From the NCBI GenBank assembly GCA_903915655.1, contig CAIWTU010000110.1:1-38027 (forward strand): DNA of 38,027 bases. Direction: 5' to 3'. The position numbers and the translations under genes are program-made. This stretch comes from an uncultured Geobacter sp. Its GTDB lineage: Bacteria > Desulfobacterota > Desulfuromonadia > Geobacterales > Geobacteraceae. Positions 2,284-22,600 of the stretch are shown piece by piece. Under the pieces are notes generated by a model. It did no database searches. It saw nothing but the letters and a program-made list of their open reading frames with translations, and was not told where the DNA came from. Every line of letters begins with the position of its first letter. Position 1 is the first letter of the stretch.

Positions 2284-2523
2284 TTATCTTCTGTTTATAA
2301 ATTCATCATAAAGGGTAAAAGCCCGTTTAAGTTGGGATTGGACTGGTCCGGAAAGCGTTTTAAACTGTGTATTTCGTTTTAATAAGAATATCGTTTCGTC
2401 AAGTAATTTTGGCTTTTGACCAACCAGTGCCAACCCTCTTTTATACCTTGAAAGCACGTCTCTGGAAGAGTCCTTGTTCAAGCCTTTCGCCTCAAGCCAT
2501 GCAACAAATTGACTATAGTCCAT
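2284..2523 (-). CDS. Small protein coupled to the methyltransferase, SAM-like core-binding fold
   Basis: This 79-residue protein overlaps the last 11 bases of the cytosine methyltransferase gene. The start at 2523 is fixed by a perfect AGGAGG six bases upstream, inside the methylase coding sequence; a longer frame back to 2553 lacks such a site. The sequence FVAWLEAKGL followed by SRDVLSRYKRGL resembles the N-terminal core-binding (SAM-like) domain of tyrosine recombinases, but no catalytic domain follows. Translational coupling suggests an accessory role in the restriction-modification system, such as DNA binding or regulation. Function is not known. Confidence 0.65.
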   Translation of the reverse strand: MDYSQFVAWLEAKGLNKDSSRDVLSRYKRGLALVGQKPKLLDETIFLLKRNTQFKTLSGPVQSQLKRAFTLYDEFINRR

Positions 2524-3427: not shown

Positions 3428-3468
3428 AGGATGATTTTCTAATGGAATTTATTTGATAGTAGCAATAT

Positions 3469-3504
3469 ATACTGGTGACGTCAATATTCTGACGTCACCA
3501 GTAT
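3469..3504. repeat. Perfect 15-bp inverted repeat between endonuclease and methylase
   Basis: Left arm ATACTGGTGACGTCA (3469-3483) and right arm TGACGTCACCAGTAT (3490-3504) are exact reverse complements around a 6-base loop. Each arm contains the palindrome TGACGTCA. There is no T run after the stem on the minus strand, so a classical rho-independent terminator is unlikely. It may act as an attenuator, an mRNA processing hairpin, or an operator setting the endonuclease/methylase ratio. Confidence 0.85.
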
Positions 3505-3519
3505 TTGGTTAAAGTTTAA

Positions 3520-4626
3520 TTAATCGAACAAGCCAGGAGTATTTAAAATAATCGCGTCAAACCTTCTCTCAGGGCTAAGATAATTCTGGCCATCACCCAA
3601 AATAATATTTTTGATTTCTTTTTTCGTTATACGCGGTTTAGTTAAAAACGCCGACGCGAGATACGCATGAGTCGCGATGCCACTTACCGCAAACGCTTTA
3701 TCATTTTTGGTATTCAGCGATACTTCATCAATGATATTTGCATAATTTATTTTCCCATGATGAGAAAAGTCATACAGCATTCTTGCGAGCCAAATAACAG
3801 TTCTCATATGTCTAGACACTTTGAAGATATCGCGCTGTAAATCAAATTTTGCTTGATCGACAAACAAACGAGTGAAAGCAAAGTTACTCCACACGAATAT
3901 ATCTAAGCAATTTTCAGCCAGTTGAATTGATTTGCCATTGGTTTTCCAGACTGGCTGCATCACCAGAGCTGTTTGTTTAGTCAGTACTCTTAACAAGGCT
4001 TTATCGATTGATGCCACCATTTCTGACAAATAACCCTTCAAAGAATCGAAATCATTCCATTCTAAGATTTTCCCACATGAATCAGACATTAAGTTGTGCA
4101 AAACAGAGATATCATCTTTATAACAAGCAACGATGCTCAGAGCCAAATATATTATGCTATCTGGACGGACCACGATTTCACAGCTAAAATCCTCATGGGT
4201 GAGTTTGCACGTAGTATTGTCTGGTAAAGCAGTCAATTTAATTTCAATCATTTTCAACGAGGCTGAAGAACTAGAGTTCATCGTGACTAAGTCGATTCTC
4301 GGAAGAGTGCCTGTAACGAATTGCCGAAACGGAGGGTAATCACTTTCAAATGAAAAATACAAGTCGGGTGAATCAGGCTTCAACCCAAATAGCTGATCAA
4401 CAGAAATAAAGGAATGCTTAACGTTTAAATCCGAACCTAGTGTTAGATACACTAAGTTGAGCTGTTTGGAATACATGTAACATGCCAAGGCGGCTGGGAA
4501 AGACGAATTGAATTGGTTTTTTCCCCAGCTCTCCTCTTTAGTAAAATCCCGGTTTGAATTAACTATGCCGTAAAGACTCGGTTCCACATTTGAATTGTAC
4601 CCAATAAATGTTTCACAAAGCAACAT
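3520..4626 (-). CDS. Type II restriction endonuclease, HindVP/HgiDI-like
   Basis: The 368-residue protein resembles the HindVP family of Type II endonucleases (family target GRCGYC). Matching features are an N-terminal NSNRDF / SWGKNQFNSSFPAAL segment (about 24-46) and a PD-(D/E)XK core. In the core, the Asp in PRIDLV (about 110-115) precedes an EIKLTALPDNTT strand (about 127-138), followed by a CEIVVRPDSIIYLA segment (about 150-163). The pairing with a C5 methylase downstream supports the assignment. The family match is from memory of conserved motifs, so the recognition sequence is inference. The gene is AT-rich compared with flanking DNA, as is common for transferred R-M systems. It is divergent from vsr with a 75-base shared promoter region. 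Confidence 0.7.
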   Translation of the reverse strand: MLLCETFIGYNSNVEPSLYGIVNSNRDFTKEESWGKNQFNSSFPAALACYMYSKQLNLVYLTLGSDLNVKHSFISVDQLFGLKPDSPDLYFSFESDYPPFRQFVTGTLPRIDLVTMNSSSSASLKMIEIKLTALPDNTTCKLTHEDFSCEIVVRPDSIIYLALSIVACYKDDISVLHNLMSDSCGKILEWNDFDSLKGYLSEMVASIDKALLRVLTKQTALVMQPVWKTNGKSIQLAENCLDIFVWSNFAFTRLFVDQAKFDLQRDIFKVSRHMRTVIWLARMLYDFSHHGKINYANIIDEVSLNTKNDKAFAVSGIATHAYLASAFLTKPRITKKEIKNIILGDGQNYLSPERRFDAIILNTPGLFD

Positions 4627-8785: not shown

Positions 8786-9229
8786 TTACAAAGGAGATGC
8801 ATGACCCAAAGTTGCATTCTTTTTCAATTGAGTTTTCACTGCTCTTAATAGATCGTCCCTTGTGAACGGTTTGGGAAACCAAGGTACCCCAGTCCTGGAA
8901 AAGAAATCCACGCACTCCTCGCTTTTATAATCGCCGGTGGCAAATATTATTTTATTCAGGTACGATCGATTTGTTTCTTCGATACGGTGGTAAAACTCGA
9001 TACCGCTCATACCTGGCATCCTAATACCCATAATAATAAGATCAAACTTCTCTCTCTTGATCCGTTTTAAAGCTGCGATAGCCGTGTCTGCCCCTTGTAC
9101 ATCATACTCATCAGAGGACAACACACGTTTAATAATCTTCGCGAATCTTGGTTCATCATCCACGACTAGTATTTTGAGTTTGCCGGATTTTCTTATTAGC
9201 CGTAGCCGATAGAGTAGAGATTTGATCAT
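8786..9229 (-). CDS. Degenerate response-regulator receiver protein (phospho-Asp lost)
   Basis: This is a stand-alone receiver domain of 147 residues with no output domain. The acidic pair is present in VVDDEP (D24, D25), the switch Thr in FATGD (about 97) and the conserved Lys in FPKPF (about 119). In the phospho-acceptor strand, DLIIMGIRMPGMSG has Gly68 exactly where DLIIMDIRMPG has the phosphorylated Asp (codon GGT in place of GAT). It therefore should not be phosphorylated in the standard way and is better called a pseudo-receiver, perhaps a constitutive binding module. It is the last gene of the minus-strand operon, 14 bases after the phosphatase gene. AAAGGA precedes the ATG. Confidence 0.85.
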   Translation of the reverse strand: MIKSLLYRLRLIRKSGKLKILVVDDEPRFAKIIKRVLSSDEYDVQGADTAIAALKRIKREKFDLIIMGIRMPGMSGIEFYHRIEETNRSYLNKIIFATGDYKSEECVDFFSRTGVPWFPKPFTRDDLLRAVKTQLKKNATLGHASPL

Positions 9230-9243
9230 ATGTAACTATCCTT

Positions 9244-9774
9244 TTAGACTATTTTTAGCAAAGAAACGAGATCAGTTCTCGTATAATCTTTTCCGACGCC
9301 ATCAAGAAGTCGTCGCGAAACACCTGCGACATTCGAGACTGCCTTCAAGGCTTCGTCGATGTCCATATTCCTTACTCTCACAAGAAATGCTGCTAGTATG
9401 ACTGATGTACGTCCCGAACCAGCTCTGCAATGAACGACAGTTTTGCCATCATCCTTAATAGATTTTCTCAAAAATGGGATAATGAGCTTGTCCAAAGCTT
9501 CTCTGCTACATAAACTATCATTTGTAATTCCTGCCCAAAGAATGTTCTCCTTACCAAATTCGGCCAGATAAAGTTCTTTTAGTGGAGGCTTTGTATAGAA
9601 ATTGTGAATCTCATCGGCTGTTAATAAGCAACAAACACGTTTGACCCCGTTCTCTTTCATAAAAGACACCCATGATTGAGGCATGCGCCACTCAGGTGCT
9701 TGAGCACCATAGAGTAATGGTTCACCTTCGCAAGCTGGGCCGAAATTATAGAAGTTTGCTCGATACAACTGCAT
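9244..9774 (-). CDS. Dual-specificity-type Cys-phosphatase (paralogue 1)
   Basis: The 176-residue protein has a protein-tyrosine/dual-specificity phosphatase active site HCRAGSGRTS with Cys116 and Arg122 (CX5R). A possible general-acid Asp lies in ITNDS (about 86). The family dephosphorylates phospho-Tyr/Ser/Thr proteins, or in some branches phosphoinositides, RNA 5' ends or nucleotides; the substrate here is unknown. It is closely related along its whole length to the 12941-13471 protein: both share FGPACxGEPL, GAQAPE, the CSRE segment and the active site. A good AAGGAG lies eight bases before the ATG. It sits between a small unknown gene and the pseudo-receiver. Confidence 0.85.
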   Translation of the reverse strand: MQLYRANFYNFGPACEGEPLLYGAQAPEWRMPQSWVSFMKENGVKRVCCLLTADEIHNFYTKPPLKELYLAEFGKENILWAGITNDSLCSREALDKLIIPFLRKSIKDDGKTVVHCRAGSGRTSVILAAFLVRVRNMDIDEALKAVSNVAGVSRRLLDGVGKDYTRTDLVSLLKIV

Positions 9775-9807
9775 TTCAAATACTCCTTATTTTCATGGCA
9801 ACAGCTA

Positions 9808-9981
9808 CTAGCCAGCCTTGACGACGGTTTCGTTATATCCCTTTCCGTTGACTCCCCATTCGCGCAAGGCTGTAACCAGCTTGTTTTCTCGATTCAACAC
9901 GGTTAACTTCAATCTGATTGCTTGCTGGGTATTTTTGACGGGTTCACCACCTGCTTCGTTTTGTAATTTGAATAAGGACAA
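9808..9981 (-). CDS. Small hypothetical protein (57 aa, TTG start)
   Basis: The frame from a TTG at 9979-9981 encodes a 57-residue protein with plausible composition, including KLTVLNRENKLVTALREWGV and a C terminus ending TVVKAG. AAGGA sits five bases before the TTG. It fills what would otherwise be a 290-base hole in a tightly packed operon, 33 bases upstream of the phosphatase start. A strand-helix pattern is likely in residues 20-45. No family is recognised. Confidence 0.6.
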   Translation of the reverse strand: MSLFKLQNEAGGEPVKNTQQAIRLKLTVLNRENKLVTALREWGVNGKGYNETVVKAG

Positions 9982-10065
9982 TTATTTCCTTCGCCTGATC
10001 TCTATAACGAATACGATCTAATATTCTGGGGCAAATATCTAGTCACTCTCAATCGTCTCTTTTGT

Positions 10066-10891
10066 TTAATTCTCAACGTCACGATCTCCCTCGAGTGCGT
10101 GCGCAGTAACGGCATGGGGTACAACCTTGTTTTCGACTATAGCGAGCCCCATGATGGGGGTGCCTTGAGTAGAAGCCGTTCGCATATGGAATACTACGAT
10201 TTGATTCCTCCATTCGGGATGGGTTTGACTTAAGGACCCAATCAAACTGAAACCGCACATTGATCGGTGTATGCATGAGTGCAGTGAGGGTTTGTTCTAT
10301 AAGTGTTCGCTGACACTTTCCGAGGTACTCGGCCACGAAAGCATTGGAAACGCCCACTAGAAAATGAGAGCCATCAAAGGCGAGCCCTTCTGTCTCCTTA
10401 AACCAGGTCTGGTAGGTAGTTTTACTTACCTGTTGCTGTATTTCGATTAAAGCGGCTTCCCATGTTAGCCCGGTCCCAAATTCTTGTTTTACACACCTAT
10501 AAACCCCGCCTGTGGTCCCATCAACAATAATACGCATTCCTGTTTGAAGAATGGTCGTGGCGTTCCCTGTACCTGGGATGTATGGAATATTCAGCTCTCT
10601 GGAGAGTATAGACGCTCCGCAAGTTAGCGCTCCGTGATCAAGCACCATGGCGGAGGCTTTCTTCAAAAAACTGGAGGTGTCCGGTAAGTTCATTCCTACC
10701 CGGCTTGAGTTAGAAACAATAATTTCGCCCTGTTGAAGGCCCATGCTCAGGTTGTAATCATCCGCCCCGATATTCCTGACATAACCCAGAACTATGCCCG
10801 AATTCGAAGGTATCCCTGACAATAGTTTTTCACCCTTCATCTTTTCGATGAGCATTCGGTCAGTTATGACATGTTTGGGTTCGTTTTGCAT
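10066..10891 (-). CDS. Degenerate PEP-utiliser swivel domain fused to a DnaA N-terminal-like domain (frameshifted 3' end)
   Basis: Residues about 22-132 match the swivelling phosphohistidine domain of PEP synthase/PPDK: SGIPSNSGIVLGYV, GEIIVSN, KKASAMVLD, RELNIPYIPGTGNAT and VDGTTGGVY. The catalytic loop normally reads GG-TSHA; here it is GALTCGAS, so the phosphorylated His is Gly (Gly92). Residues about 143-217 match DnaA domain I (WEAALIEIQQQVSKTTYQTWF, then VGVSNAFVAEYL), a protein-interaction module without an ATPase here. The last part appears frameshifted near 10200: the original frame turns Arg/Cys-rich and stops at 10079, while the overlapping frame reads IVVFHMRTASTQGTPIMGLA and stops at 10066. 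The ATG at 10891 is chosen for AAGGAGG eight bases upstream. It is tightly spaced behind the BFN/Clp-N gene. Confidence 0.75.
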
Positions 10892-10918
10892 ATGGATATC
10901 CTCCTTCCCTGGCATATC

Positions 10919-11797
10919 CTACGCCAGTACCTGTTTTTGCCTTAATATTTGAAAGTATATTTTCTCAAGCGTAACCCCATATTTTCTCAGGATATCGCCT
11001 GCTACTCCTTCGCTGGAAACCATCGCCATGAGAATATGTTCTGGTCTGACTCTGTGGGTATCAGATAATGCAAAGGCTTTGTCTATCGAAGATTGAATCA
11101 GGTCCTTGGTCGCGGTAGTCAAGCTCGATTCCTCAACGGGTGATTCGTTTGCGACAAGTGCCTCGATATTTTTGACATCCAGGTGCACCTCCAAACCTGT
11201 AAGCATGGTGGATACGGAATTTTCCTTCATTAACGCCAAGAGAAGATGCCCTGTACCTACGAATCCATTATTTAATCTTTTCGACTCCAACCCGGCGATT
11301 TTTAACAGCTCTTGAGTTGTATCAGCGATGTACCTGACAATCTGGTAGTAAGGTTTCTCTGCATGGGCGCCGGCGTCGTCTAAAGTAACGCCGTTCTTTT
11401 CGAGAACATCTTCTTCAACATTTACAGGGATCAGTTTGCTTATTGAAAGGGAAATCGCGTCACTGGTTCTGGCTTCAAATGGGTACCTGATACCACCCTT
11501 GTTCAATATGATTTTGGTAAAGAACGAATCATCTTCATAGCCGTAGATCACTACTTTCTCTAATTCAATGCCGAATTTAGTCATGACAGTATTTAGAAGA
11601 TCGAGTAAATCAGGACGCTCTGAATAGTCGTTTCGGATTTTGCTACTTATGAGGTTAGCCTGGGTTGAGCCAACAACAATAGGCAAATATCGGTCCGAGG
11701 TTTTATCTTTAAGTAGCACGTTATATAGTGTGCCACGAGAGATGGACGACGAGTCCATGAATCCGGCACGCAGGCTATCCACCAACATTTCAATCAT
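10919..11797 (-). CDS. Bifunctional-nuclease (DUF151) domain fused to a Clp-N repeat domain
   Basis: Residues 1 to about 135 match the bifunctional nuclease family: LPIVVGSTQANLI, RPDLLDLLNTVMTKFGIELE, KVVIYGYEDDSFFTKI and FEARTSDAISLSISKLIPV. Family members have reported DNase/RNase activity. After a linker, residues about 165-290 contain two Clp-N-type repeats (FVGTGHLLLALMKENSVSTM and VRPEHILMAMVSSEGVAGDI). These resemble the adaptor- and substrate-binding module of ClpA/ClpC, but no ATPase follows. The protein thus looks like a nuclease-like domain tethered to a Clp-type interaction module. GGGAGG precedes the ATG by about ten bases. It lies in the middle of the phosphatase/FtsZ operon. 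Confidence 0.8.
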   Translation of the reverse strand: MIEMLVDSLRAGFMDSSSISRGTLYNVLLKDKTSDRYLPIVVGSTQANLISSKIRNDYSERPDLLDLLNTVMTKFGIELEKVVIYGYEDDSFFTKIILNKGGIRYPFEARTSDAISLSISKLIPVNVEEDVLEKNGVTLDDAGAHAEKPYYQIVRYIADTTQELLKIAGLESKRLNNGFVGTGHLLLALMKENSVSTMLTGLEVHLDVKNIEALVANESPVEESSLTTATKDLIQSSIDKAFALSDTHRVRPEHILMAMVSSEGVAGDILRKYGVTLEKIYFQILRQKQVLA

Positions 11798-11860
11798 TTG
11801 TTCTTTTCCTCCCTGCTGGTTTCTATTGATTCAGTTTTAGCTCAGCGATGAGCGCTCTAT

Positions 11861-11953
11861 TCATATATTTGCTTCCGATGCCATTGAGAGTGTGCCGGGA
11901 GTTCCCGGAGCTAAAACATGGGGAATGCGAACGTTCATGTGATTTGCCGCCAT
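11861..11953 (-). CDS. Possible 30-residue peptide gene
   Basis: In the 175-base gap between the Cys-rich protein and the BFN/Clp-N gene, an ATG at 11953 follows AAGGGA by seven bases and opens 30 codons ending at 11861. The peptide includes MNVRIPHVLAPGTPGT. It may be a real small protein, a leader peptide, or chance. Its tight fit with the operon and the ribosome binding site are the only support. Confidence 0.35.
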   Translation of the reverse strand: MAANHMNVRIPHVLAPGTPGTLSMASEANI

Positions 11954-11972
11954 AGTAGCGTCCCTTGAATAT

Positions 11973-12515
11973 TTATGAGGAACGTCTATTCGCTTTTTTA
12001 ATTTCCCGTGGGTTAACAAACTCGCCTCTGGTGAGTCGGTCCGCAAGCTCAATTTGCGTAATGGGGATATGGGAATACCGCATTTTGATGAGTCCCCTCA
12101 AATTTGGTGTCTTATCTAAGAAATTGCGGATATTCCCAATGATTTCATCAGGATTTTCACTGCCGCGTATTATTTCGGCGCTCTCGTTCGCCAGTGCTGT
12201 GATATTCTTACGAACCCCACCCATTCCGCAATAGGTTATAAGTTCTTTTTGCAAAGCTTTAATCTTCTCGAATTGTCTTTCGGAGAAGTTGAAAATTAGA
12301 TTTTGCTGGAAACGAGTTGTTCCCATGCCTAACCACAACGCACATGCACCGCACATCGTGTAGGTCTTTGAGGGGCTATCTGCAGCGTCAATAACTGTCC
12401 CGCAAAGGTAGGCCGAGGGTTGGACAAATGTACACACATCACAGCGAAAAGTGCCTTCAGGAATACGCTTTGATTCACCCAGCCTTCCCCCTTTATTTCT
12501 GTGGAATAATTTCAT
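11973..12515 (-). CDS. Hypothetical protein with N-terminal CxxC pair (zinc-binding-like)
   Basis: The 180-residue protein begins with a basic segment, then a four-Cys arrangement CDVC (about 25-28) and CGAC (about 55-58) that could hold one zinc ion. A helical region follows (FSERQFEKIKALQKELITYC, about 75-95), then a C-terminal helical part with ITQIELADRLTRGEFVNPREI resembling a helix-turn-helix or docking helix. No family is recognised. The ATG overlaps the preceding stop in an ATGA (12512-12515) and AGGGTGG precedes it, so the two are translationally coupled. Confidence 0.65.
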   Translation of the reverse strand: MKLFHRNKGGRLGESKRIPEGTFRCDVCTFVQPSAYLCGTVIDAADSPSKTYTMCGACALWLGMGTTRFQQNLIFNFSERQFEKIKALQKELITYCGMGGVRKNITALANESAEIIRGSENPDEIIGNIRNFLDKTPNLRGLIKMRYSHIPITQIELADRLTRGEFVNPREIKKANRRSS

Positions 12516-12913
12516 GATTGACCACCCTGAGGATTATTCTTATCAGATATTTGTCCGCTGAGTCCTTTGGGTGGGAAAGTTTTCTCCTCTGGCATTCCCT
12601 TGTCCGAGCGCAACTTGTCTCTTACTGCTTTGAAGATGGGTATCCATGCAGAGTCAGCTCCCAATTCTGGAAACACTTTCCACAATCCGAAAGCGTTTCT
12701 GATCCACATGCCTATATCAAAATGGTAGTGCATCCAAGCGTTGGTGCCGCTATTAGCAACGATATCTTTAGTTTCTTGATCCATGTGGGAGATCACAATT
12801 TCAACAGCTTCGTCCATTGGGATGGGCCATTGACGAATAGGCATTTTTATTTCCGGAGAATTTGATTTGCTCGCATTGGAATCGCGAGCATCATCTCGAG
12901 GTGTATTAGCCAT
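12512..12913 (-). CDS. DUF6794-like small protein
   Basis: The 133-residue protein has a disordered polar N terminus and a central domain (about 25-95). The central pattern PIPMDEAVEIVISHMDQETK, then HYHFDIGMWIRNAFGLW, resembles DUF6794, a small domain of unknown function found as single-domain proteins in many bacteria. The C-terminal tail is Pro/Gly/Gln-rich. AAGGAG lies eight bases before the ATG. The gene is 27 bases after phosphatase 2 and overlaps the next gene by four bases. Confidence 0.65.
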   Translation of the reverse strand: MANTPRDDARDSNASKSNSPEIKMPIRQWPIPMDEAVEIVISHMDQETKDIVANSGTNAWMHYHFDIGMWIRNAFGLWKVFPELGADSAWIPIFKAVRDKLRSDKGMPEEKTFPPKGLSGQISDKNNPQGGQS

Positions 12914-12940
12914 TCGAAAATCTCCTTTCTTGCACCATTT

Positions 12941-13471
12941 TCAATCCGCCTTTAACAATGCGAGCAATTCTTTCAAGGAATAGTTCCATCCAACCCCTTC
13001 TAGTGGTGCACGATAAACCCCTTTAATACTTGAAACACCTTCCAGGGATTTCGCAGGATCCATTTTCCTGACATGGGTAAGAAAGGCCGCCAGTATTCTT
13101 GAAGTCCTGCCGGCACCCGCCATGCAATGAACTACAAACTTGTCGTCCTTCTCAACAGATTTGCGCATGAAAGGCACTATTGTTTTCACTAATAATTCTC
13201 TGCTGCAAATATGGCTGTCTAGGATTCCCGCCCAGCAAATATTGTCTTCACCAAATTCACGTTTGTAGATTTCTCTGATTGGCTGCAGCGTGTAGACATC
13301 GTCAATTTCTGCGTCAGGTAAGAGGCAGATTACGCGTTTAATCCCACGGGTTTTCATCCCGTCTACCCAGTACTTAACCCGGATACTTTCAGGGGCTTGT
13401 GCACCGAAGGCCAATGGTTCACCATCACATGCTGGCCCAAAGTTGAAGGGGTTAATATGTTGCATTTGCAT
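12941..13471 (-). CDS. Dual-specificity-type Cys-phosphatase (paralogue 2)
   Basis: The 176-residue protein has active site HCMAGAGRTS with Cys116 and Arg122 and a candidate general acid in ILDSH (D85). It is the same length as the 9244-9774 phosphatase, with the active site at the identical position, and is alignable end to end. The two are products of a duplication and now bracket the DUF6794, Cys-rich, BFN/Clp-N and swivel/DnaA-N genes. The GGAGG ribosome binding site is nine bases before the ATG. It starts 43 bases after the FtsZ-like gene. Substrate unknown. Confidence 0.85.
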   Translation of the reverse strand: MQMQHINPFNFGPACDGEPLAFGAQAPESIRVKYWVDGMKTRGIKRVICLLPDAEIDDVYTLQPIREIYKREFGEDNICWAGILDSHICSRELLVKTIVPFMRKSVEKDDKFVVHCMAGAGRTSRILAAFLTHVRKMDPAKSLEGVSSIKGVYRAPLEGVGWNYSLKELLALLKAD

Positions 13472-13514
13472 CGTTTAAAGCCTCCGGTATTATTCTATGG
13501 GAGCGCTCGAATAA

Positions 13515-14525
13515 TTAACTCTGTCTTTCCAGGTCTTGATTTGTTGAATCATTATTGTTTGAAAAAGGATCTGAGAATTTGGTCAGCAACAGAGCAATGT
13601 GTATCTCCTCACCTAATTTGTCGTCACAGTGGACCGAGAAAGCAATATTCGCATCAGGGTCAATTTCTTGCCTGATAATCTCGGCGGCTGAATTTACCTC
13701 GAAAAGCGTAAGATTACTACTACTCCCTCTTACGCTAAACAAAGCAGCATGAGCCCTGTTTCCAGTGGCGTCTGAAGAAAGGTTGGCCAGAGTTGCATAG
13801 GCCGCCTGAGCGGCTCGGTCTTCTCCCGACGAAGACCCGAATGACACTTCGGCCAATCCGGAGTCTTTTAAAATACCGCGGACATCAGCAAAATCAAGAT
13901 TGATCATGCCGGGAAGGCAAATAGCCTGGGTGAGCATATCCACACTGTTAGCCATTGAGGCTGTTATGGTTTGGAAGACCGAAGCCACATCTAGTTTGCT
14001 CTCGGATGAAGATGAGGTCAGGTCTTGAGGCATAACTATCAAGCTATCGACGCTTCGCAGCAATGCTTCAACCCCCTGTTGTGCTGTCTCCGCGCGATAA
14101 TCACCTTCAAATACAAAGGGAGCAGCCACTATTCCGATTACCAATGCTCCCATGTTTCTTGCCATTGCGGCGATTATAGGAGCCGCGCCCGCTCCGGTTC
14201 CGCCACCTACGGCTGCCACAACGAATAATATGTCTGAACCATTGATGTTCTGCCGGATAATTCCGCGGCTCGCTTCAGCTGCTCTGCGCCCCATGTCAGG
14301 GTTGTTGCCGGACCCCAGTCCGTGGAGGAGTCGCCCGCCAAGTTGTATGCGTTTGGGTACATCCGCCATGGCGAGGTCCTGGGCATCCGTGTCCATCGCG
14401 ATATATTCAATGCCGTAGGGGGCGGGGATCTCCCTCGCCGCCATACGTGATACCATTTGGCAACCCGTTCTCCCTACTCCGACTACCTTGAAACGCCACT
14501 TTGACGGATTGAAAATACTACTCAT
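13515..14525 (-). CDS. Divergent FtsZ-family tubulin-like GTPase
   Basis: The FtsZ/tubulin fold is recognisable from the T4 signature GGGTGAGAAP (about 107-116), the T3-like HGLGSGNNPDMGRRAAE (about 68-84), the nucleotide-contacting MDTDAQDL and the T7 catalytic loop NLDFADVRGILKDSG with both Asp residues (about 209-223). Polymerisation-linked GTP hydrolysis is therefore plausible. The first glycine loop differs: VGVGRTGCQMV replaces the usual VGVGGGGGNAV. The C-terminal FtsA/ZipA-binding peptide of cell-division FtsZ is absent; the tail is Asn/Asp/Ser-rich. With 336 residues and this context it is probably not the division FtsZ. GAGAGG supports the ATG at 14525 over one two codons upstream. 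Confidence 0.85.
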   Translation of the reverse strand: MSSIFNPSKWRFKVVGVGRTGCQMVSRMAAREIPAPYGIEYIAMDTDAQDLAMADVPKRIQLGGRLLHGLGSGNNPDMGRRAAEASRGIIRQNINGSDILFVVAAVGGGTGAGAAPIIAAMARNMGALVIGIVAAPFVFEGDYRAETAQQGVEALLRSVDSLIVMPQDLTSSSSESKLDVASVFQTITASMANSVDMLTQAICLPGMINLDFADVRGILKDSGLAEVSFGSSSGEDRAAQAAYATLANLSSDATGNRAHAALFSVRGSSSNLTLFEVNSAAEIIRQEIDPDANIAFSVHCDDKLGEEIHIALLLTKFSDPFSNNNDSTNQDLERQS

Positions 14526-14642
14526 ACGCATACCTCTCTATTTGTAATGTGACTAATTTGATCCGAGGGCAGTTGACGATTACGCCGTCCGAAGGGCTGA
14601 TTGAAGTAACGCCGCTTCTCTCTTTTCCGTGTATATCTTTAT

Positions 14643-16115
14643 TCACACATCCTCGCCGCTCCTGCGTATTTTATTTTGATAATAAATGGCTACCAATTGT
14701 TCCTGCTCCGGTGTTTCAACCGCGAACTCACAGTACCTATCCCGGATAGTCTTTATCGCAGAGTCAGGGCCAAGGTGTTCAAGCTCGATCAGTAAGCAAG
14801 CTAATACAGTTCCCGTTCTTCCGTGTCCCCTGCAACCTGCTATATCAACTTTCTTGCCGGATTCCAGCAGTTTCAAGATTGAGTCAACCGTCTTCTCAAA
14901 CAAGGGAATATCGATCATCCCTTCATCAGGCCAATCAATCACGGTCTTGGGGTAGGAGGTAACCTGGTTACTCCACAAATTAGCAAGGCATATCCCAAAA
15001 TCAGGGACGGGGTCAATATCTGCTTTGTTATTGAAATTGCTGCTTCCGAAAACTAATCCGTCATAAGAAGATGTTAACAACGTGTAATGCCCTATGTTTA
15101 CTTTTTGTCTCCAGTGAAGATGTAGGCATAAATTGCCTTTGAAAGCCCATTCGCGGAACCTGGCTATTTGAAGGGAAGCTCCTGCAAGGAGTTCAATTAC
15201 TTCTCCGACATGAGATTGATTGGTTCCCCACTTCTCTGGACTTTCCGCAAGATTCAAAAGGGCAGAGCATCGATAAGGGTCTTCTGGCTTGTAGAAGTAG
15301 TCTATTGGGCACTGGAGGCTTGGATTAAAGCCATAATCCCCGTCTTGGCCTTGTTGATTCGCGACATACTTTTCTTGCCATGTTAGATACATTTGCCAAT
15401 GGGGTAGGATGGTTGTCTCATGTGTCGTTAACCAAGTCCGATACTCGGCATATTGGAGCTTCTCCGTTTCTTCAGGCGGCTGCGGTTTGAGTACGATATC
15501 CATTAGAGCATTGATGAAATCCTCGTATTTTATAGTCCATTCCATAACTAATTGCTGCTCTTCAGTGTTCAGAAAAGACGTTTTCGGGCGGTGTGCATTT
15601 TTATCTGTTGAAGGTGCTTCAGGCACTGATGTATTTTCATCCTCATCACCGCAGATAAAACTGTAGAATGTTCGAGCTATTAAGCCTTGGCGGAAAAGTA
15701 TCATGCATGTATTCCAAGAATCAGCTTCATTCGGTTTCCAAACATCGCGGCTGTTTTGCAGATGAATGGCATGAGCCATTTCATATAGGTTTTCAGGTTC
15801 ATAGAACATGGCGAAGGGATTCAGCCAATGTATATAGGGAGTGTCATCATCGGCCTCTAACTTCACTAATTTAGCTTCATAATAATCGGCCCACAATGGA
15901 ATCAATCGTTCGGCATGCTCAATGAACCATGTACGGAGCTGTTTATGTTTGAGTTGCTCATCTTCGGTTGGGGGGTGAGGTATGAAGTATGGTTTTACAT
16001 AAGGCCGGTCGGTTATGAGCAATGCGAAAATTAAATGGGAAAACTCGGACCAGCGGTCCACCCATTCTTCGGTGAAATCCTGGTCTGAATTCGAATATAT
16101 TTTATTAGCCGACAT
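14643..16115 (-). CDS. Large protein with duplicated helical region and PTP-like domain lacking the catalytic Cys
   Basis: The first gene of the minus-strand operon encodes 490 residues. The N-terminal two thirds is an internal duplication: about 15-150 and 186-325 align, sharing LRTWFIEHAE / YRTWLTTHET and NPFAMFYEPENLYEMAHAI / CPIDYFYKPEDPYRCSALL. The C-terminal domain (about 328-490) is paralogous to the stand-alone phosphatase at 36130. It keeps a WPD loop (DWPDEG) and the GHGRTG of the P-loop. Where the paralogue has DIACIM, this protein has DIAGCR: the catalytic Cys position is Gly and a Cys sits one residue later, only four residues before the Arg. It is therefore a probable pseudophosphatase. 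The ATG at 16115 is preferred to the TTG directly before it. Confidence 0.75.
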   Translation of the reverse strand: MSANKIYSNSDQDFTEEWVDRWSEFSHLIFALLITDRPYVKPYFIPHPPTEDEQLKHKQLRTWFIEHAERLIPLWADYYEAKLVKLEADDDTPYIHWLNPFAMFYEPENLYEMAHAIHLQNSRDVWKPNEADSWNTCMILFRQGLIARTFYSFICGDEDENTSVPEAPSTDKNAHRPKTSFLNTEEQQLVMEWTIKYEDFINALMDIVLKPQPPEETEKLQYAEYRTWLTTHETTILPHWQMYLTWQEKYVANQQGQDGDYGFNPSLQCPIDYFYKPEDPYRCSALLNLAESPEKWGTNQSHVGEVIELLAGASLQIARFREWAFKGNLCLHLHWRQKVNIGHYTLLTSSYDGLVFGSSNFNNKADIDPVPDFGICLANLWSNQVTSYPKTVIDWPDEGMIDIPLFEKTVDSILKLLESGKKVDIAGCRGHGRTGTVLACLLIELEHLGPDSAIKTIRDRYCEFAVETPEQEQLVAIYYQNKIRRSGEDV

Positions 16116-16118: not shown

Positions 16119-16397
16119 TTACATCCACTAAGTTATGTGCATTGACAATTTTTCCCGATTACCAAACCTTTTCAACTCAAGTTCTGATATCACCATCGTT
16201 TTGTCTGGCATATTCAAAAACGGGTCCATTCCAATGTTTATAAGTAAGCCTAACATGCCCCCGCGACAACTTATTATGAGGTCAATATGGCATTAGGGGG
16301 CATATTCTCTGGGCGTGAAGGTGTATTTATTGTGCTACAATGTCAGTAGTTCTCGTCCATCCACTAGCTTTCAGCGGCCTTCAGAACGGGGGGACAC
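16119..16397. promoter_or_regulatory. Divergent control region between the PTP/FtsZ operon and WYL regulator 1
   Basis: The 280-base region contains an 8-bp inverted repeat, ATGCCCCC (16255-16262) and GGGGGCAT (16296-16303). An extended -10 TGCTACAAT (TACAAT 16336-16341) points toward the WYL gene. A TATAAA about 130 bases upstream of the minus-strand operon could serve that side. No coding sequence is evident. Confidence 0.4.
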
Positions 16398-17387
16398 ATG
16401 CCGAAGAATTCTCGCGCCGACACCGTAGCCCGTCTCTCGCATATTGAACACTTGCTTTACCAGCACGGAGAGCAAGGCATGAAACTCGAAAAGCTCGCCG
16501 AGATTTGCGAGGTCAGCAAGAGAGCAATTCAACGCGACTTAAAACTAATCGAAGAAGAAGACATATTCCCTTTATGGCGTGACAGCGGATCTTGCGGCAT
16601 TGTGCTCAATAGATACCTTCCACCAATCAGATTTGAACCCTCACAAGCTCTTAACATATTTCTGGCGGCACGCCTAATGGCGACTTACGCTCACAGAAAT
16701 GACCCCGATATCACGGCGATTTTTACCAAACTGAACTGCGTTGTGCAGCCCCCGCTGAAGGAGCAGGTTGAAAAGACCATCGCCTGGATGAAAACTTTGC
16801 CAAGCAATGGAAAAGTTGTGCGCACATTAAATTATCTGGCAGATGCATGGTCGACAGGACACACGGTTAAAATTAAATACCGATCAGTCGAGGCCAACGA
16901 AGCTAAAGAGCGGCTTGTTGATCCATATTTCATTCAGCCGGCAGGGCATGGACATTCGTCGTATGTTTTAGCCTATTGTCATTTGCATAAAGCAATCCGC
17001 ACGTTCAAAGTGGACCGCATTCAAGCTATCAACATAACCGATGAAACATACATAGTGCCCTCCGATTTTGATGCAAACAAATATCTCAGTTCGGCATGGA
17101 GCATCATGGTAGGTGAGAATATCATAACGGTTAAGCTCAAAGTAGCCAAAAGTATGGTGCGCTTCATGGAGGAAATTATCTGGCATTCCTCTCAAAAATT
17201 TACCAAGTATCCCGATGGCTCAGCTCTGATGACTATCGAAGTCAGCCATACAGCCGAATTGATGAACTGGATATTGGGATGGGGAGATGGGGTGGAAGTG
17301 CTGGAACCTGCATCACTCAGGGAGGACGTTGCTAGGAAAGCAAGAGCCATATCTACCGTCTATTCTAACGAAAATGGTGTTTTGTAG
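16398..17387 (+). CDS. WYL-domain transcriptional regulator 1
   Basis: The 329-residue protein has the standard order: N-terminal winged helix-turn-helix (LEKLAEICEVSKRAIQRDLK, about 30-49), a WYL domain (about 150-225, with DPYFIQPAGHGHSSYVLAYC and RTFKVDRIQAI) and a C-terminal WCX region ending MNWILGWGDGVEVLEP. Such proteins sense ligands, probably nucleotides or nucleic acid, through the WYL domain. BrxR and CapW in defence islands are known repressors of this architecture. It is a full-length paralogue of the regulator at 32731-33723. A G-rich ribosome binding site precedes the ATG, and an extended -10 lies at 16336. It is followed on the same strand by the helicase gene. Confidence 0.9.
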   Translation: MPKNSRADTVARLSHIEHLLYQHGEQGMKLEKLAEICEVSKRAIQRDLKLIEEEDIFPLWRDSGSCGIVLNRYLPPIRFEPSQALNIFLAARLMATYAHRNDPDITAIFTKLNCVVQPPLKEQVEKTIAWMKTLPSNGKVVRTLNYLADAWSTGHTVKIKYRSVEANEAKERLVDPYFIQPAGHGHSSYVLAYCHLHKAIRTFKVDRIQAINITDETYIVPSDFDANKYLSSAWSIMVGENIITVKLKVAKSMVRFMEEIIWHSSQKFTKYPDGSALMTIEVSHTAELMNWILGWGDGVEVLEPASLREDVARKARAISTVYSNENGVL

Positions 17388-17401
17388 GCGTCTAGTCCGT
17401 C

Positions 17402-17436
17402 TGACAGAAACAGTTGTCGCAGGATGTTGTTACCAT
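17402..17436 (+). promoter_or_regulatory. Degenerate palindrome plus -10 upstream of the helicase gene
   Basis: TGACA (17402-17406) and TGTCG (17415-17419) are separated by eight bases, followed ten bases after TGTCGC by TACCAT (17431-17436). This imitates the TGACA-N7-TGTCA-N10 arrangement found at three right-hand promoters, with one mismatch and one extra spacer base. It may be the corresponding site for WYL regulator 1. Confidence 0.3.
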
Positions 17437-17467
17437 GATATTAAGATAAATCAATGAAACGTTTGCT

Positions 17468-19642
17468 TTGAAAAGAGTGCTAGTGGACACAGCAAATATC
17501 CTAAGTTCGGTAGGTATCGACTTCCAGGTTGAGGATCTTCCTGGACAGAACCCTGAAATAAACCCCCTTGGACGGAACGCGTCGCACTTTGGTGTAGTGA
17601 CTATCCCAAATTTCACTCTGTATACTCATCAGATTAAGGTGGTTGAACTTCTCCTGGCAGGACAGAACGTGCTTCTCACGTCGGGGACAGCGTCTGGAAA
17701 GACAGAGGCTGCTTGCCTGGGAGTTCTTGCTAAAAGCAGACTGCAAAAGTATGAGCCTTGCCAGGTGTTGTTTCTGTACCCGACTAAGGCATTGGCTAAC
17801 GATCAGGCAGAGCGAATAGTTAAGTACTTTTCTCCTTTCTCAGTCTGTCGATTCGATGGTGACAACGACAAGAGGCGCTCAGAGGTATCACACTCCGAAA
17901 TTGTTCTCAGTAATCCCCAGATGCTTACTGAGCATCTCAAGTTTGCCAGTCCATTTAGTAGTTTTCTCGCCAATCTATCTTTCCTGATAATAGACGAAGT
18001 GCATCTCTACAACTCATATCAATGGTCTTTACTTCTTTCGTATTTCAACGTGTTGAAACAGAAGGGACTCCAAACCCAGGTGATTCTTCTATCAGCTACG
18101 CTTGGGAATGCCTCTCAGTTGTGCCAGATTGCTGGGGATCGACTGGGGCGTATATTCATTCATGTTGACGGTGGCACAGTTGCCGCCCCAGCCAAGCGAT
18201 ACACAATCACTCATAAAGTACCGAATTTAATGGAGTTCCTCAAAGAACTCGCTCACACTTATGCCAAGGATCCGATTGGAACTCTTATGTTCCTGCCCTA
18301 TAAGACTCAGGTAAACTCACTGCACGCTTCAATCGACGATAAACGCGTAGTTCGGCACCACGGATCAATCAAAGCGGAAGAAAGGTATGAAACTGAAAGG
18401 AACCTAAAAAGTGGCGAAGCCAGTGTGTGCCTTACATGCAAGACGCTTCAACAAGGCATAGACATCGGTCGAGTTGGACGAGTCATACATGTCGGGCTTC
18501 CTGACACCGTGGCTGAATTTCGGCAAAGGGAAGGGCGCAAGGGGCGTGTTCCGGGAAGTCATGCCGAATCGATATTAATCCCGTTTGCGCCATGGGATGC
18601 AGCGATCATAGGAGATACCCAACGCTATAGAAGGTACCTGGCAATGCCTACTGAGGCAACTCCTCTTCCCTTGCAATCGGCAGCATCGACGCTATTCGAT
18701 GCATTCTACGCGTCCATCTATCACTTACCACAACAGCCAGAAACCCTTAAACTAGCAAAGGAACTCGGATGGGTAGAGTCAAGGGTAGACTTGGAATTAT
18801 ACATGATGGAAGACGAGCTGCCACTTTGCGTAGAACCAACCGAGTTGGGGGGCGCACTGTTCCATAATTTGAGTTTTTATGGTTTTGGTCGAGTCCCTCT
18901 GGTTTATAAAGATCGGAGGATCGATGAAACTTCTTATTCAGAGGCCGTACGATCTGCACTCCCAGGTTGCTTTCTTAACATCGAAGGTGAACCATATATA
19001 GTATCCCGATGGTCCAAATACCCGGTGAAACCTGACCCCGAGCTTGTGATATTCCTTCAGAGAATTGAGGATTCTGAGTATGCCAGGTTTGCGGGTAAAG
19101 TCGCTGAAGGTACGGTCTTCTCCAGAGTGCAGTTCTTGCCCTCAGATATCACTGTCGAGAGTCTCCGTGGTCCTTTTTCAATCGTAAAACTACGCCCTAA
19201 CCAGGTGGACATCCTTGAGATCGTGAATATGAAGCCTAAAATAATTGCACGACAACAACTACTAATTCAGCCTCAGCTCCCGTTGTACACCAACGCATTC
19301 ATGCTGACCTCTGAAATTGCAACTGAGGCCGACTGTGAATTGGCTGTTCATATAATAATCCATGCTATGCGTGAGGGGTTTTCTATCCCAGTTAATACGT
19401 ATGCTCATGTGGTGATCAGCGACGGGCTACGAACGGATATTATCTTATACGAAGTGCTTTGGGGCGACACGCACCTTTTATTAGACGTGGGAGTGTTACT
19501 AGAAAATGCACTACGTTTGGCGAATAGCCCTTGCGACGAACTTCTGCTTCCCCGGTGTGCTGAGGTCTCGTTTGACAACGAAAGCGACCGGGTGGAAGTT
19601 ATTAAACTCTTGCATAGACTAGCATCACTTATCGGACGATAA
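17468..19642 (+). CDS. DEAD/DEAH-box superfamily 2 helicase (Hrq1/YprA-like)
   Basis: The 724-residue SF2 helicase has motif I SGTASGKTEAA (about 71-81), Ia PTKALANDQA, II DEVH (about 176), III SAT (about 209), V TLQQGIDIGRVGR (about 327) and VI QREGRKGR (about 352). The motif V/VI sequences and the wing-like LNIEGEPYIVSRW segment (about 498) resemble the Hrq1/YprA/Lhr group of 3'-5' DNA helicases. The typical C-terminal DUF1998 Cys cluster is missing, so this is a short or different C terminus. The start is uncertain: the frame opens with TTG at 17468 without a ribosome binding site, and a GTG four codons in is possible. The next gene begins 22 bases after the stop, implying one operon with the AAA protein. 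Confidence 0.85.
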   Translation: MKRVLVDTANILSSVGIDFQVEDLPGQNPEINPLGRNASHFGVVTIPNFTLYTHQIKVVELLLAGQNVLLTSGTASGKTEAACLGVLAKSRLQKYEPCQVLFLYPTKALANDQAERIVKYFSPFSVCRFDGDNDKRRSEVSHSEIVLSNPQMLTEHLKFASPFSSFLANLSFLIIDEVHLYNSYQWSLLLSYFNVLKQKGLQTQVILLSATLGNASQLCQIAGDRLGRIFIHVDGGTVAAPAKRYTITHKVPNLMEFLKELAHTYAKDPIGTLMFLPYKTQVNSLHASIDDKRVVRHHGSIKAEERYETERNLKSGEASVCLTCKTLQQGIDIGRVGRVIHVGLPDTVAEFRQREGRKGRVPGSHAESILIPFAPWDAAIIGDTQRYRRYLAMPTEATPLPLQSAASTLFDAFYASIYHLPQQPETLKLAKELGWVESRVDLELYMMEDELPLCVEPTELGGALFHNLSFYGFGRVPLVYKDRRIDETSYSEAVRSALPGCFLNIEGEPYIVSRWSKYPVKPDPELVIFLQRIEDSEYARFAGKVAEGTVFSRVQFLPSDITVESLRGPFSIVKLRPNQVDILEIVNMKPKIIARQQLLIQPQLPLYTNAFMLTSEIATEADCELAVHIIIHAMREGFSIPVNTYAHVVISDGLRTDIILYEVLWGDTHLLLDVGVLLENALRLANSPCDELLLPRCAEVSFDNESDRVEVIKLLHRLASLIGR

Positions 19643-19664
19643 GTCTTTTTGGAGGTGGAGATCA

Positions 19665-22600
19665 ATGGCAGAAAAACAAATATTCCAGGCTCAGGGACAG
19701 CCAGAAGAAGAACGTACCATAAAATCGGATGTAGAACGAATACGTCAAGCCTTAAGAGCCGAGGGCGAAGCACTGCAAAGGCAAGCAAAACAAACGTCGG
19801 TAGAAAGGCAAACTAAACAAAAACCGTTAAAAAAGCAGGGTAACCAAGAAGAGGCGCAGAAACCTAATCATTCTGGGCGATCGCTAAGCGATCTAGAAAA
19901 GTCACTGCTATGGCTCCTCAAGGAAGTCAGACCTTTGACCATGCGAGAAACCAACCTTGACCAACCAGACAGAGACACTTTCTTGCGATTAGCGACAACG
20001 ATATGTCTAGGACATCGAGAGTTCGAAAAGCATTACCTCACGGTCTCTTCGGCATTCAGTCAACTTATAGTAGAAGGGTTTGTAAATACAGTCAATGCCG
20101 GTTACACGAAAGGTAATAATTGGAGAGGTGCCTTCCTGGAACCTATGATACCAGCATCCCAGTTTGAAGGCGTAAAACCTAAGGTGCAAAGTCTTCTGGA
20201 ATCGTCTCAGCGAGAACTCATTACGTCGAGCGTTGCCCGTTTTGTTTTTTATTTTAATAAAGGGGTGGCTCTCAAGTCGATCGATTCCAAGACTATAAGC
20301 GACCTCGAGTGCCACGGGCTTTGTTTCAAAGTCAGCGGGGAAATTATGACGGTTCCCCTGTTTTTTACTGGCCCCATTCCACAGAACGCACTAAAACGAG
20401 CCGAGACTGAACTTAGGCTTCTTCAAAGAGAGAGGTTTGCGAGCCTATCAAGCGATGAACGTTTGGCCGGGGTATTACTCCGGGTTGTCCTGATCAAGGT
20501 TCTCCGAGGCTGCCCCGTAGGTAAGGACGATGCTATCGTATTATCGGAAGCAGATGTCAGGTTACTTCAAGATATGTCGATCTTTGTTTCTCCAGGTCAA
20601 AAGACCGTTATCCTATTTGAGGAACAGTTAATAGAGCTCTTGAATTCCCATTTCACTAAAGAACAGAAACTGAAGATCCTCAAGATAGGAATCATCGGGC
20701 CGGAAGTCACGGCTACTCAGATCAGGCTAATTTTAGCCAAGGGACTGGAAGCTAATGTAGCTACCGAAATCCCTGTGCCTTTAGTGAAAGGATTAGATGG
20801 TGAGCTGTACCTCTTGGAAGATACAGAGTTGGCGTTGAAGGTGCGATATTTTGAACAACACCGTGCGACCATAGAATTAATCGCGTTTATTCAGAAACAG
20901 AATCAACCAAACACAATACTGGACACGACTCGCCGTTTTGTGTCGGTAGCTGCGGCAGAAATGCCGTTGCTAAATGTTGGGGACGTCTTTGAAAATTTCT
21001 CAATTATTGCAGGATTTCAAGGAGGCCTATCTGAAGAGCAACTCTGCGTTTCAATAGCCCCCCCTCTTAAAGTGTTGTTTCAGAAGCTTTATTCTAGGGT
21101 TGAAGTGGGCGCACTCTACCTCATTGAAAAAGCAAACGCAGCCCATGTGAGTTGGGAAGTAGAAAACCAGGCAATCTTAGCTATGTTGGTTGACCAGAAG
21201 ATATTGGACACTCTCTATACCAATGGGATGATATCATCCCAGAAACAGCCTGAGATACTACCATGGGTACGCGATATAATTTCGAAAGCTGCTCTCGCCG
21301 AAATACTAACTGAAGAGGATTGGACGATTGGAATAAAACAAGCAATAGAAAAACAGTATGCAGCACTTTCAGCCCGCGAAAGGGCTCTGTTACAATTGAT
21401 CATAGGGCAGCCTCTTGCCACAAGTTTTAGCTTGCAATCGACTGTAAAAGATGTATTCGCTTCCTATCTTGCCGGCCTGGGGGTAGATCAATCACTTTAC
21501 CGTAAACTGAAATCATTATTTTATATTTTCTTTTCTGGCAAAAGACTTGACAGCCTATTCGAACTAGGGAGTTTCCCAACGTTGGCGGCTGATCCGGAAG
21601 TATGGCAAGCGATAACGGGGAAAACTAAATATGATCTGATTGGTGAAGCAACGGATGCCGTTAAGTCTTCGGGTTTCGCTGAATGGGTTACTGCTTTGAA
21701 AGGGCACGAACATAAACTGAACATGGAGCCTCTTTTCAGGAATCATGTTTTAACGTGCTCGAGTGACCAAAAAGTCTGGCTCACCGAGGTGGGTTACGAA
21801 GTTTTATCTGAATGGTTTATGGCAGAACAAGCGGAGCTTGTTCACCGTCTCCAAAGTAAAGGAATTCCGATCGAGGGACAGACCACAACTGGCCGCTTGC
21901 TCCGGATCAACATAGGGGGTGGTAAATACACCCTCGTGGTCACCGGGGCGGTTGAAATAACAAGCGCTGGAGAAACATCTATTACAATAGCCAGTTTTAA
22001 TCAAGCATTGAAGACCGTAACCGAAACAATAGATACAAGAACCGGAGAAACTATCATATTGACGGGAATGCTTGTAAACCAATATAAAAGCGTGAGAGAA
22101 GTGAATTCTGGCATCCGGCGATATGTGGAGCATGGTGGGACAGTGATCGACGTTGGTAAGAATACCGTGATATCGGCAATTCCACAAGTTGGAGAGATAG
22201 TGCATTCAGTGCGTGAAACGCTAGGCCATGACATAGAGATCCCAATGGAATTACAGGGTATTTTGGCCGAGCTTCGCGGTGTCATCGAATCTAGAGTGCG
22301 AAAACAGGCTGATCAAGAACGAGAGCAACGGGAAAAGCAAGAACGCGAGAAAGTTAGGGAGGTTTTTGCGTTTGATGAGCTAATGTTTGCGGTATTCCTT
22401 GGAGAGCTTGAGGTCGAAACCGACGCGTATGTCGTAGAGAATGGCATTCGTCCATTTACGCGCTTGTTTCATGGTTTGCCAGGTTGCGGTAAATCGGCAC
22501 GAATTCAAGGTGAGCTTCGCTCACTGAAGACAGGGATGGACAAAATAGGGAAGCCACTAGTTGTAAAAGAAATTTCTATCTCTCGCCTCGTGGATGGGCA

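What the first reader, a model, noticed from the sequence alone, without database searches (positions are those of the whole stretch)
8786..16115. Operon joining FtsZ-like GTPase, Cys-phosphatases and degenerate signalling domains
About eleven minus-strand genes with short gaps or overlaps combine a divergent FtsZ, three PTP-type proteins, a BFN/Clp-N fusion, a swivel/DnaA-N fusion, a DUF6794-like protein, a Cys-rich protein and a receiver. I know of no described system with this set. DnaA-N, Clp-N and FtsZ are recruitment or polymerisation modules, so the operon may assemble a cytoskeletal or proteolysis-linked signalling complex that targets replication or division.
Basis: partly seen in the sequence, partly recalled or inferred. 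Interest (0 to 1): 0.8.

Follow-up and report, generated by a model that had tools for sequence, protein, structure and literature searches.

The report
Operon of degenerate host-protein look-alikes
A bacterial defence island carries a run of genes for odd, partly inactivated look-alikes of cell-division, DNA-replication, protein-breakdown and signalling proteins, which might work as baits for phage or other attackers, but only one copy of the set has been seen and nothing has been tested.

Summary
New here: the key phospho-residue is missing in three of them (swivel His->Gly, receiver Asp->Gly, third phosphatase Cys->Gly). The FtsZ has changed nucleotide-pocket residues and no C-terminal peptide. 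Two phosphatases keep CX5R. The operon lies among restriction, WYL/helicase and nuclease genes, so it is probably island cargo. No related neighbourhood was found, but the searches were centred on the assembly's nominal phylum, and the contig differs from much of that assembly in composition, so absence is weak evidence. My best reading: interaction-only mimics (FtsZ, ClpC N-domain, DnaA domain I, swivel, receiver) that bind what normally binds the originals, as sponges or sensors for phage or toxin inhibitors, plus two working phosphatases. Confidence 0.3. The set matches no system in PADLOC or in the papers searched; the novelty rating is provisional, since there is one locus and no function shown.

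The parts
14643..16115 (-). p9, 490 aa from ATG: two copies of an unnamed ~130-aa domain, predicted mostly helical at very low confidence, + C-terminal DSP-type phosphatase domain whose catalytic Cys is Gly
   Evidence: internal duplication 24% over 129 columns, E 1e-14 in a two-sequence comparison; 48% to window:36130-36603; AGCRGHGRTG against ACIMGHGRTG / ACIMGHVRTG in two paralogues
13515..14525 (-). p8, FtsZ-like (start probably ATG 14525): T4 and T7 kept; T1, T6 and T6/H7 pocket residues changed; no C-terminal peptide
   Evidence: Pfam, and TIGR00065 273.1 bits against cut-off 295.2; 18 of 63 columns invariant in 18 other FtsZ changed; loops; very long tree branch
12941..13471 (-). p7, DSP-PTPase, HCMAGAGRT (CX5R intact)
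   Evidence: 54-55% to p2
12512..12913 (-). p6, DUF6794 protein
   Evidence: 38.9 bits, cut-off 27.1
11973..12515 (-). p5, 180 aa, CxxC...CxxC (possible zinc binding), six Cys, no family
   Evidence: fold prediction failed (pLDDT 38)
10919..11797 (-). p4, BFN domain + ClpC-like N-domain, no AAA+ part
   Evidence: Clp_N aligns over residues 154-286 to ClpC N-domains
10066..10915 (-). p3, PEP-synthase-type swivel domain with His replaced by Gly + DnaA domain I; last ~36 codons probably out of frame, the coding frame ending at 10066
   Evidence: ltCGa against mtSHa; frame scores
9808..9981 (-). possible small gene (57 aa), no family
   Evidence: codon score 0.141; no Pfam or PHROGs hit
9244..9774 (-). 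p2, DSP-PTPase, HCRAGSGRT (CX5R intact), paralogue of p7
   Evidence: DSPc 39.2, cut-off 33.5
8786..9229 (-). p1, stand-alone receiver; phospho-acceptor Asp is Gly (LIIMGIRMPG)
   Evidence: alignment to an ordinary receiver
14518..14646 (-). possible 42-aa ORF between p9 and p8
   Evidence: codon score 0.114
16128..16256 (-). possible 42-aa ORF before p9
   Evidence: codon score 0.102
16398..17387 (+). divergent WYL/WCX regulator, possible regulator of the operon or of the helicase genes beside it

Best explanation
The operon is defence-island cargo whose main products are interaction-only mimics of host proteins: an FtsZ subunit without its C-terminal partner peptide, the ClpC substrate/adaptor-binding N-domain on a BFN domain, the DnaA partner-binding domain I on an inactivated swivel, and a receiver that cannot be phosphorylated. 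They bind what normally binds the originals. I think the likeliest use is as sponges or sensors: inhibitors made by phages or rivals against FtsZ, ClpC or DnaA are soaked up or detected. The two phosphatases with intact active sites (p2, p7) and the Cys-rich, DUF6794 and p9 proteins would regulate or relay. SHOWN here: domain make-up, lost phospho-residues, the changed FtsZ pocket, missing catalytic modules, defence-gene surroundings. INFERRED: co-transcription, binding, bait function, and the role of every protein without a known domain.
For: Three phospho-residues lost in one operon (for the swivel; for the receiver; for p9). FtsZ pocket: T1 GVGGGGGNA -> GVGRTGCQM, T6 Asn -> Gln, T6/H7 Asp -> Thr, while T4 GGGTG and T7 NxDFAD are kept. 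Clp_N and DnaA_N lack their AAA+ parts. Surroundings: HindVP restriction pair, WYL regulators, DEAD and SF1 helicases, AAA proteins, PDC-S26 nuclease. Precedents (abstracts read only): T7 Gp0.4 sequesters monomeric FtsZ and the complex activates CapRel immunity (PMC13423816); ClpC2, a partial ClpC1 homologue, is a 'molecular sponge' for a ClpC1-targeting antibiotic (PMC10030653); cryptic-prophage YfdR binds DnaA, and DnaA Phe46 is important for it (PMC4776307).
Against: One locus only; no conserved neighbourhood found. No attacker that would bind these mimics is known for this host. Two phosphatases with intact active sites, DUF6794 and p5 are not explained by the bait idea. p3 gives no significant BLAST match to the first 90 aa of the assembly's own DnaA (E 3.3). 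The only Clp_N chaperone found in the assembly is one protein that I read as ClpB, not ClpC, so bait for this genome's own proteins is doubtful unless the contig belongs elsewhere. Altered residues could also reflect drift.
Confidence: 0.3

Rival explanations
1. Dominant-negative cell-cycle arrest: p8 enters or caps FtsZ filaments through its intact T7 face but cannot be extended, DnaA domain I and Clp_N titrate partners, so switching the operon on stops division, replication and proteolysis (abortive infection or dormancy).
For: T7 catalytic loop kept while the nucleotide pocket is altered, the make-up one would expect of a capper; isolated partner-binding domains; WYL regulator next door.
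Against: No toxicity data; 36-42% identity to the FtsZ listed and a very long branch make co-assembly with a host FtsZ uncertain.
Confidence: 0.2
2. A phosphatase-controlled filament or signalling complex: p8 still polymerises with altered nucleotide use, p2/p7 dephosphorylate components, and BFN is the effector nuclease.
For: T4 and T7 loops kept; p2 and p7 have intact CX5R; BFN above cut-off.
Against: No kinase among the operon's family hits; receiver and swivel lack their phospho-residues; no conserved neighbourhood.
Confidence: 0.2
3. Unrelated cargo: an island region where small genes accumulated in one direction, some partly decayed, with no common function.
For: Single locus; larger gaps of 111, 175 and 304 nt; p3 tail out of frame; phosphatase paralogues in other settings in the window and on C17.
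Against: Nine open ORFs with mostly coding-like codon use (p5 at 0.024 and p2 at 0.050 are the lowest), short gaps or an overlap at five of eight junctions, good start regions, and catalytic losses that leave other motifs of the folds in place.
Confidence: 0.3

Closest known systems
FtsZ (TIGR00065) and its relatives FtsZl1/FtsZl2 (PMC2875224, passages read)
   Same: Tubulin/FtsZ GTPase fold, GGGTG loop, T7 DFAD
   Different: p8 scores under the FtsZ equivalog cut-off, has altered T1/T6 residues and no C-terminal peptide; it lacks room for the coiled coil of FtsZl1 or the ~300-aa C-terminal region of FtsZl2, and no vWA domain is among the operon's Pfam hits
Mycobacterial ClpC2 (PMC10030653, abstract read)
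   Same: a Clp N-terminal-type domain without the full unfoldase; a possible sponge for agents that attack ClpC
   Different: p4 carries a BFN domain; p4 aligns better to ClpC N-domains (up to 44.5 bits) than to ClpC2 (23.8 bits)
CapRel-Gp0.4-FtsZ sensing (PMC13423816, abstract read)
   Same: FtsZ as the surface by which immunity notices a phage inhibitor
   Different: there the host's own FtsZ is used; no CapRel-type protein is among the operon's family hits
Stand-alone DSP-PTPases of the p2/p7 type in family f59 of the nominal phylum and in Kovacikia minuta
   Same: 39-43% and 36% identity, similar N-terminal region
   Different: I saw no FtsZ, BFN/Clp_N or swivel/DnaA_N among the neighbouring ORFs, read by eye without a family scan

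Membership tests
FtsZ cell-division protein (TIGR00065) | equivalog cut-off 295.2 bits | tested here: not met
   273.1 bits
FtsZ cell-division protein (TIGR00065) | T4 GGGTG and T7 catalytic Asp loop | tested here: met
   GGGTGAGA, NLDFADVR
FtsZ cell-division protein (TIGR00065) | guanine-contact Asn/Asp and T1 loop (roles recalled) | tested here: not met
   Asn->Gln where 18 of 18 others have Asn; Asp->Thr where 17 of 18 have Asp and 1 Asn; T1 GVGRTGCQM (2 of 18 others have no residues there)
FtsZ cell-division protein (TIGR00065) | C-terminal partner peptide (role recalled) | tested here: not met
   absent in p8; 17 of 18 others have residues in those columns
FtsZl1 / FtsZl2 | extended coiled coil and helical domain (FtsZl1) or ~300-aa C-terminal region (FtsZl2) | tested here: not met
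   p8 is 338 aa with FtsZ_C matched to residue 319; features from passages
DSP protein phosphatase | HCX5R loop | tested here: met
   met by p2 HCRAGSGRT and p7 HCMAGAGRT; not met by p9, Cys->Gly
Two-component receiver | phospho-acceptor Asp | tested here: not met
   Gly at that place in p1; fold match 78 bits
PEP-utilising swivel | phospho-carrier His | tested here: not met
   Gly aligned to His of PEP synthases; fold match 52 bits
DnaA initiator | domain I plus AAA+ and DNA-binding domains | tested here: not met
   only DnaA_N in p3, 27.5 bits, cut-off 24.6
Clp/Hsp100 unfoldase | AAA+ rings after the N-domain | tested here: not met
   p4 is 292 aa, BFN + Clp_N only
Known anti-phage systems (PADLOC-DB 2.0.0) | any component model | tested here: not met
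   all nine proteins scanned; only matches of at most 19.8 bits, for p1
Conserved system | same neighbourhood in another genome | tested here: inconclusive
   none found, but not every hit's neighbourhood was read and the contig's true lineage is uncertain

The most novel reading that the evidence does not exclude
A multi-bait decoy operon: one transcription unit that encodes inert copies of several host proteins that phages or toxins attack (FtsZ, ClpC N-domain, DnaA domain I, a swivel and a receiver) so that attackers are soaked up or detected, a bacterial analogue of integrated decoys.
Probability: 0.2. Interest if true: 0.85.

Novelty: categorically new. Interest (0 to 1): 0.55.

Why it matters
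If the mimics bind what binds the originals, this would be the first operon known to me that collects inert copies of division, replication, proteolysis and phospho-signalling proteins. It would make a general idea testable in bacteria: that immunity can present decoys of attacked host proteins. Even if the function is different, the lost phospho-residues turn a vague 'degenerate' label into named residues, and two domain fusions (BFN + Clp_N; swivel + DnaA domain I) were not seen elsewhere in the searches I ran.

Tried and rejected
Swivel His->Cys: my first reading by eye; the PEP-synthase alignment puts Gly opposite His and Cys opposite Ser, so corrected.

p9 as CX4R by a one-residue deletion: my first reading by eye; the alignment to two paralogues, ungapped at that place, shows Cys->Gly with a new Cys one place on.

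A recent copy of the assembly's own FtsZ: rejected; 39% identity and outside the ten sequences from this assembly and its class, support 98/99, though the long branch leaves its true place open.

FtsZ of a phage or plasmid lineage: the listed hits (20 of 113 plasmid records, 12 of 24 phage records) are 33-42% identical. The Paenibacillus one lies in an ordinary division cluster and the Acinetobacter one follows ftsA; other neighbourhoods were not read.

Conserved neighbourhood in G064, f59 genomes and Kovacikia: only phosphatases without the other operon members, read by eye. Loci L029 and L030 encode chaperones I read as ClpB. The viral hits L050 and L051 (31% over 52 residues) were not read further; nor were the weak matches in G448, G501, G211 and G215, although I fetched regions of the last three.

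Structure prediction of p5 and p9 without relatives failed (pLDDT 38 and 33), so no fold search was run. Rfam: no hit. Phages: no p7 hit; plasmids: no p9 hit.

Several genomes have 2-5 FtsZ matches (for example G048, G081, G087); I did not read the neighbourhoods of those second copies, and that call's list was cut by the tool.

Tying the window to contig C17 by composition alone: weaker than I first thought; see the full report.
Full report
WHAT IS THERE. Nine minus-strand ORFs run from 16118 to 8786; four of eight gaps are 3-43 nt, one junction is an ATGA overlap, three gaps are 111, 175 and 304 nt. In order: p9 (491 aa, or 490 from ATG 16115), p8 FtsZ-like, p7 phosphatase, p6 DUF6794, p5 Cys-rich, p4 BFN + Clp_N, p3 swivel + DnaA_N, p2 phosphatase, p1 receiver. 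Codon scores support small ORFs at 16128-16256, 14518-14646, 9808-9981 and 10066-10182 and not at 11861-11953. The one at 10066-10182 is probably the real end of p3: p3's own frame scores -0.32 per codon over its last 36 codons (and -0.12 over the 42 before them) while the other frame scores +0.18 over 38. DnaA similarity in p3's own frame still reaches residue 223, so a shift, real or from the assembly, lies after that.

INACTIVATED SITES. The swivel domain of p3 aligns to PEP synthases with Gly in place of the phospho-carrier His. The receiver p1 has Gly where the phospho-acceptor Asp should be, with the acidic pocket, Thr and Lys kept (roles recalled). The phosphatase domain of p9 is 48% identical to a phosphatase at window 36130-36603; against it and a third paralogue on contig C17, p9 has AGCRGHGRTG for ACIMGHGRTG or ACIMGHVRTG, so the catalytic Cys is Gly and another Cys sits one place on. 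The p2 and p7 phosphatases keep HCX5R. p4 and p3 carry the N-domains of ClpC and DnaA without the AAA+ parts.

THE FtsZ-LIKE PROTEIN. p8 scores 273.1 bits to TIGR00065, below its cut-off of 295.2. Of 63 columns invariant among 18 other FtsZ sequences, 18 differ in p8; in a leave-one-out count the others differ at 0-9. T4 and T7 are kept; T1, the T6 Asn and the T6/H7 Asp are changed; the protein ends without the C-terminal peptide. The guanine-contact and peptide roles are recalled. It is 39% identical to the assembly's native FtsZ, falls outside the ten sequences from this assembly and class (98/99 support), and has by far the longest branch and an unusual amino-acid make-up, so its place is unsure. 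All 49 PDB sequences that match at E 1e-40 are FtsZ chains, 232 to 164 bits; I did not resolve their organisms.

SURROUNDINGS. Left: a C5 methylase and a HindVP endonuclease, an MBL protein with LmuA-like matches and a TPR protein. Right, divergent: WYL regulator, DEAD helicase, a 1476-aa AAA protein and a 1135-aa RNase H-like/SF1 helicase, then a PDC-S26 nuclease, a DUF2779 protein, a second WYL and a second AAA protein, then a small cluster with another phosphatase and an HD_4 protein. This looks like a defence island, so defence is my prior for the operon.

IS IT CONSERVED? p7: one weak match (E 7e-4) in 146 other genomes. p4: 74 of 395 genomes, own included, match at E 1e-12; no listed match outside the window runs past residue 183 of 292, so none covers the BFN + Clp_N fusion. 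p8: 235 of 244 class genomes, own included, match at E 1e-20, as expected for FtsZ; the best outside the window is 42% identical, in a 418-aa frame (list cut). p7+p5+p6+p9 joined: 8 of 395, own included; three are phosphatases without the other members, four are weak fragments I did not read. p3+p4+p5+p9(1-400) joined: only the window's genome among 141 at E 1e-12. Two genome-contig scans with six 8-residue patterns each, which find close relatives only, gave no relative of p7 and two chaperones for p4. Viral contigs: p8, p3, p9, p5, p4 and the p9-type phosphatase gave none; the p7 alignment gave two short weak matches. Plasmids: one 36% relative of p7 in Kovacikia with no shared neighbours by eye; none for p9; p3 125 records, none covering 80% of it; p8 113 records at under 60% identity, few neighbourhoods read. 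Phages: none for p7; p8 24 records.

WHOSE DNA IS IT? The window is contig C110 of a 171-contig assembly whose native FtsA and FtsZ look Geobacter-like to me (recall). Tetranucleotide profiles of the window correlate 0.41-0.46 with four 20-kb stretches bearing dnaA, ftsZ or clpB or taken from C45, and 0.49-0.63 with six others, while those six correlate 0.58-0.85 with the four. I used 25 of the 41 stretches fetched from this assembly and left out the 16 under 3 kb; several short contigs (C35, C5, C15, C1, C10) are also low, and C95 resembles the window (0.63) about as well as the core (0.58-0.69). So the window deviates moderately, as a foreign island also would. Contig C17 carries a p9-type phosphatase 61% identical to the one at 36130. 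It correlates 0.51 with the window and 0.26-0.46 with those ten stretches, has a second DnaN C-terminal domain, 29% to the protein beside dnaA, and a DegV protein with no match in the other 137 genomes of the order. C17 therefore looks mis-binned; that the window shares its source is possible, not shown. That p8 and C17's proteins resemble Chloroflexota is a recalled impression; I had no way to search that phylum in depth.

MECHANISM. Shown: make-up, lost sites, surroundings. Inferred: everything about action. Losing phospho-sites while keeping folds, and keeping only partner-binding domains, points to binding without catalysis. Three of the copied proteins are known targets: FtsZ of T7 Gp0.4, with immunity sensing the complex (PMC13423816, abstract); ClpC1, for which ClpC2 acts as a sponge (PMC10030653, abstract); DnaA, bound by prophage YfdR with Phe46 important (PMC4776307, abstract). 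I therefore favour sponges or sensors (0.3), against unrelated cargo (0.3 as a catch-all), dominant-negative arrest (0.2) and a phosphatase-run filament complex (0.2). Against my reading: one locus; the only Clp_N chaperone found in the assembly reads as ClpB, not ClpC; p3 shows no significant BLAST similarity to the assembly's DnaA N-terminus; and half the operon is unexplained.

NOVELTY. No PADLOC component beyond weak receiver matches and no paper listed for the set (in an open-licence library only). 'Categorically new' refers to the make-up and is provisional.

CHECK. 

Noticed in passing
window 33870-37978 (+): A second compact cluster: IetA-like AAA ATPase, Cys-containing 109 aa, 94 aa, DSP-PTPase of the p9 type with intact ACIMGHGRTG, HD_4 protein, two more ORFs; possibly a separate signalling/defence module.
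   Followed up: partly
window 16398-27652 (+): WYL regulator, DEAD helicase, 1476-aa AAA protein and 1135-aa RNase H-like/SF1 helicase in a row; partial matches to several PADLOC helicase models, so possibly an uncatalogued helicase defence operon.
   Followed up: no
window 2513-4626 (-): HindVP-type restriction endonuclease (477 bits) with a C5 methylase.
   Followed up: no
window 29791-33723 (-): PDC-S26 nuclease candidate, DUF2779 protein and a second WYL regulator.
   Followed up: no
L079 (contig C17 of the assembly): Looks mis-binned: a second DnaN C-terminal domain and a DegV with no match in 137 other genomes of the order; the window's own composition deviates only moderately.
   Followed up: partly
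window 10066-10250 (-): Coding signal switches frame near the end of the swivel/DnaA_N gene, pointing to a late frameshift.
   Followed up: partly
window 14643-16115 (-): p9 holds two copies of an unnamed ~130-aa domain with no family match.
   Followed up: partly
L079 3074-5007: p9-type phosphatase beside a Cys-rich protein and a protein with a weak, below-cut-off restriction-enzyme-like match.
   Followed up: partly
L063 (Priestia megaterium plasmid pFDU301A): A plasmid-borne FtsZ that differs at 9 of 72 otherwise invariant columns, the most among the 18 compared.
   Followed up: no
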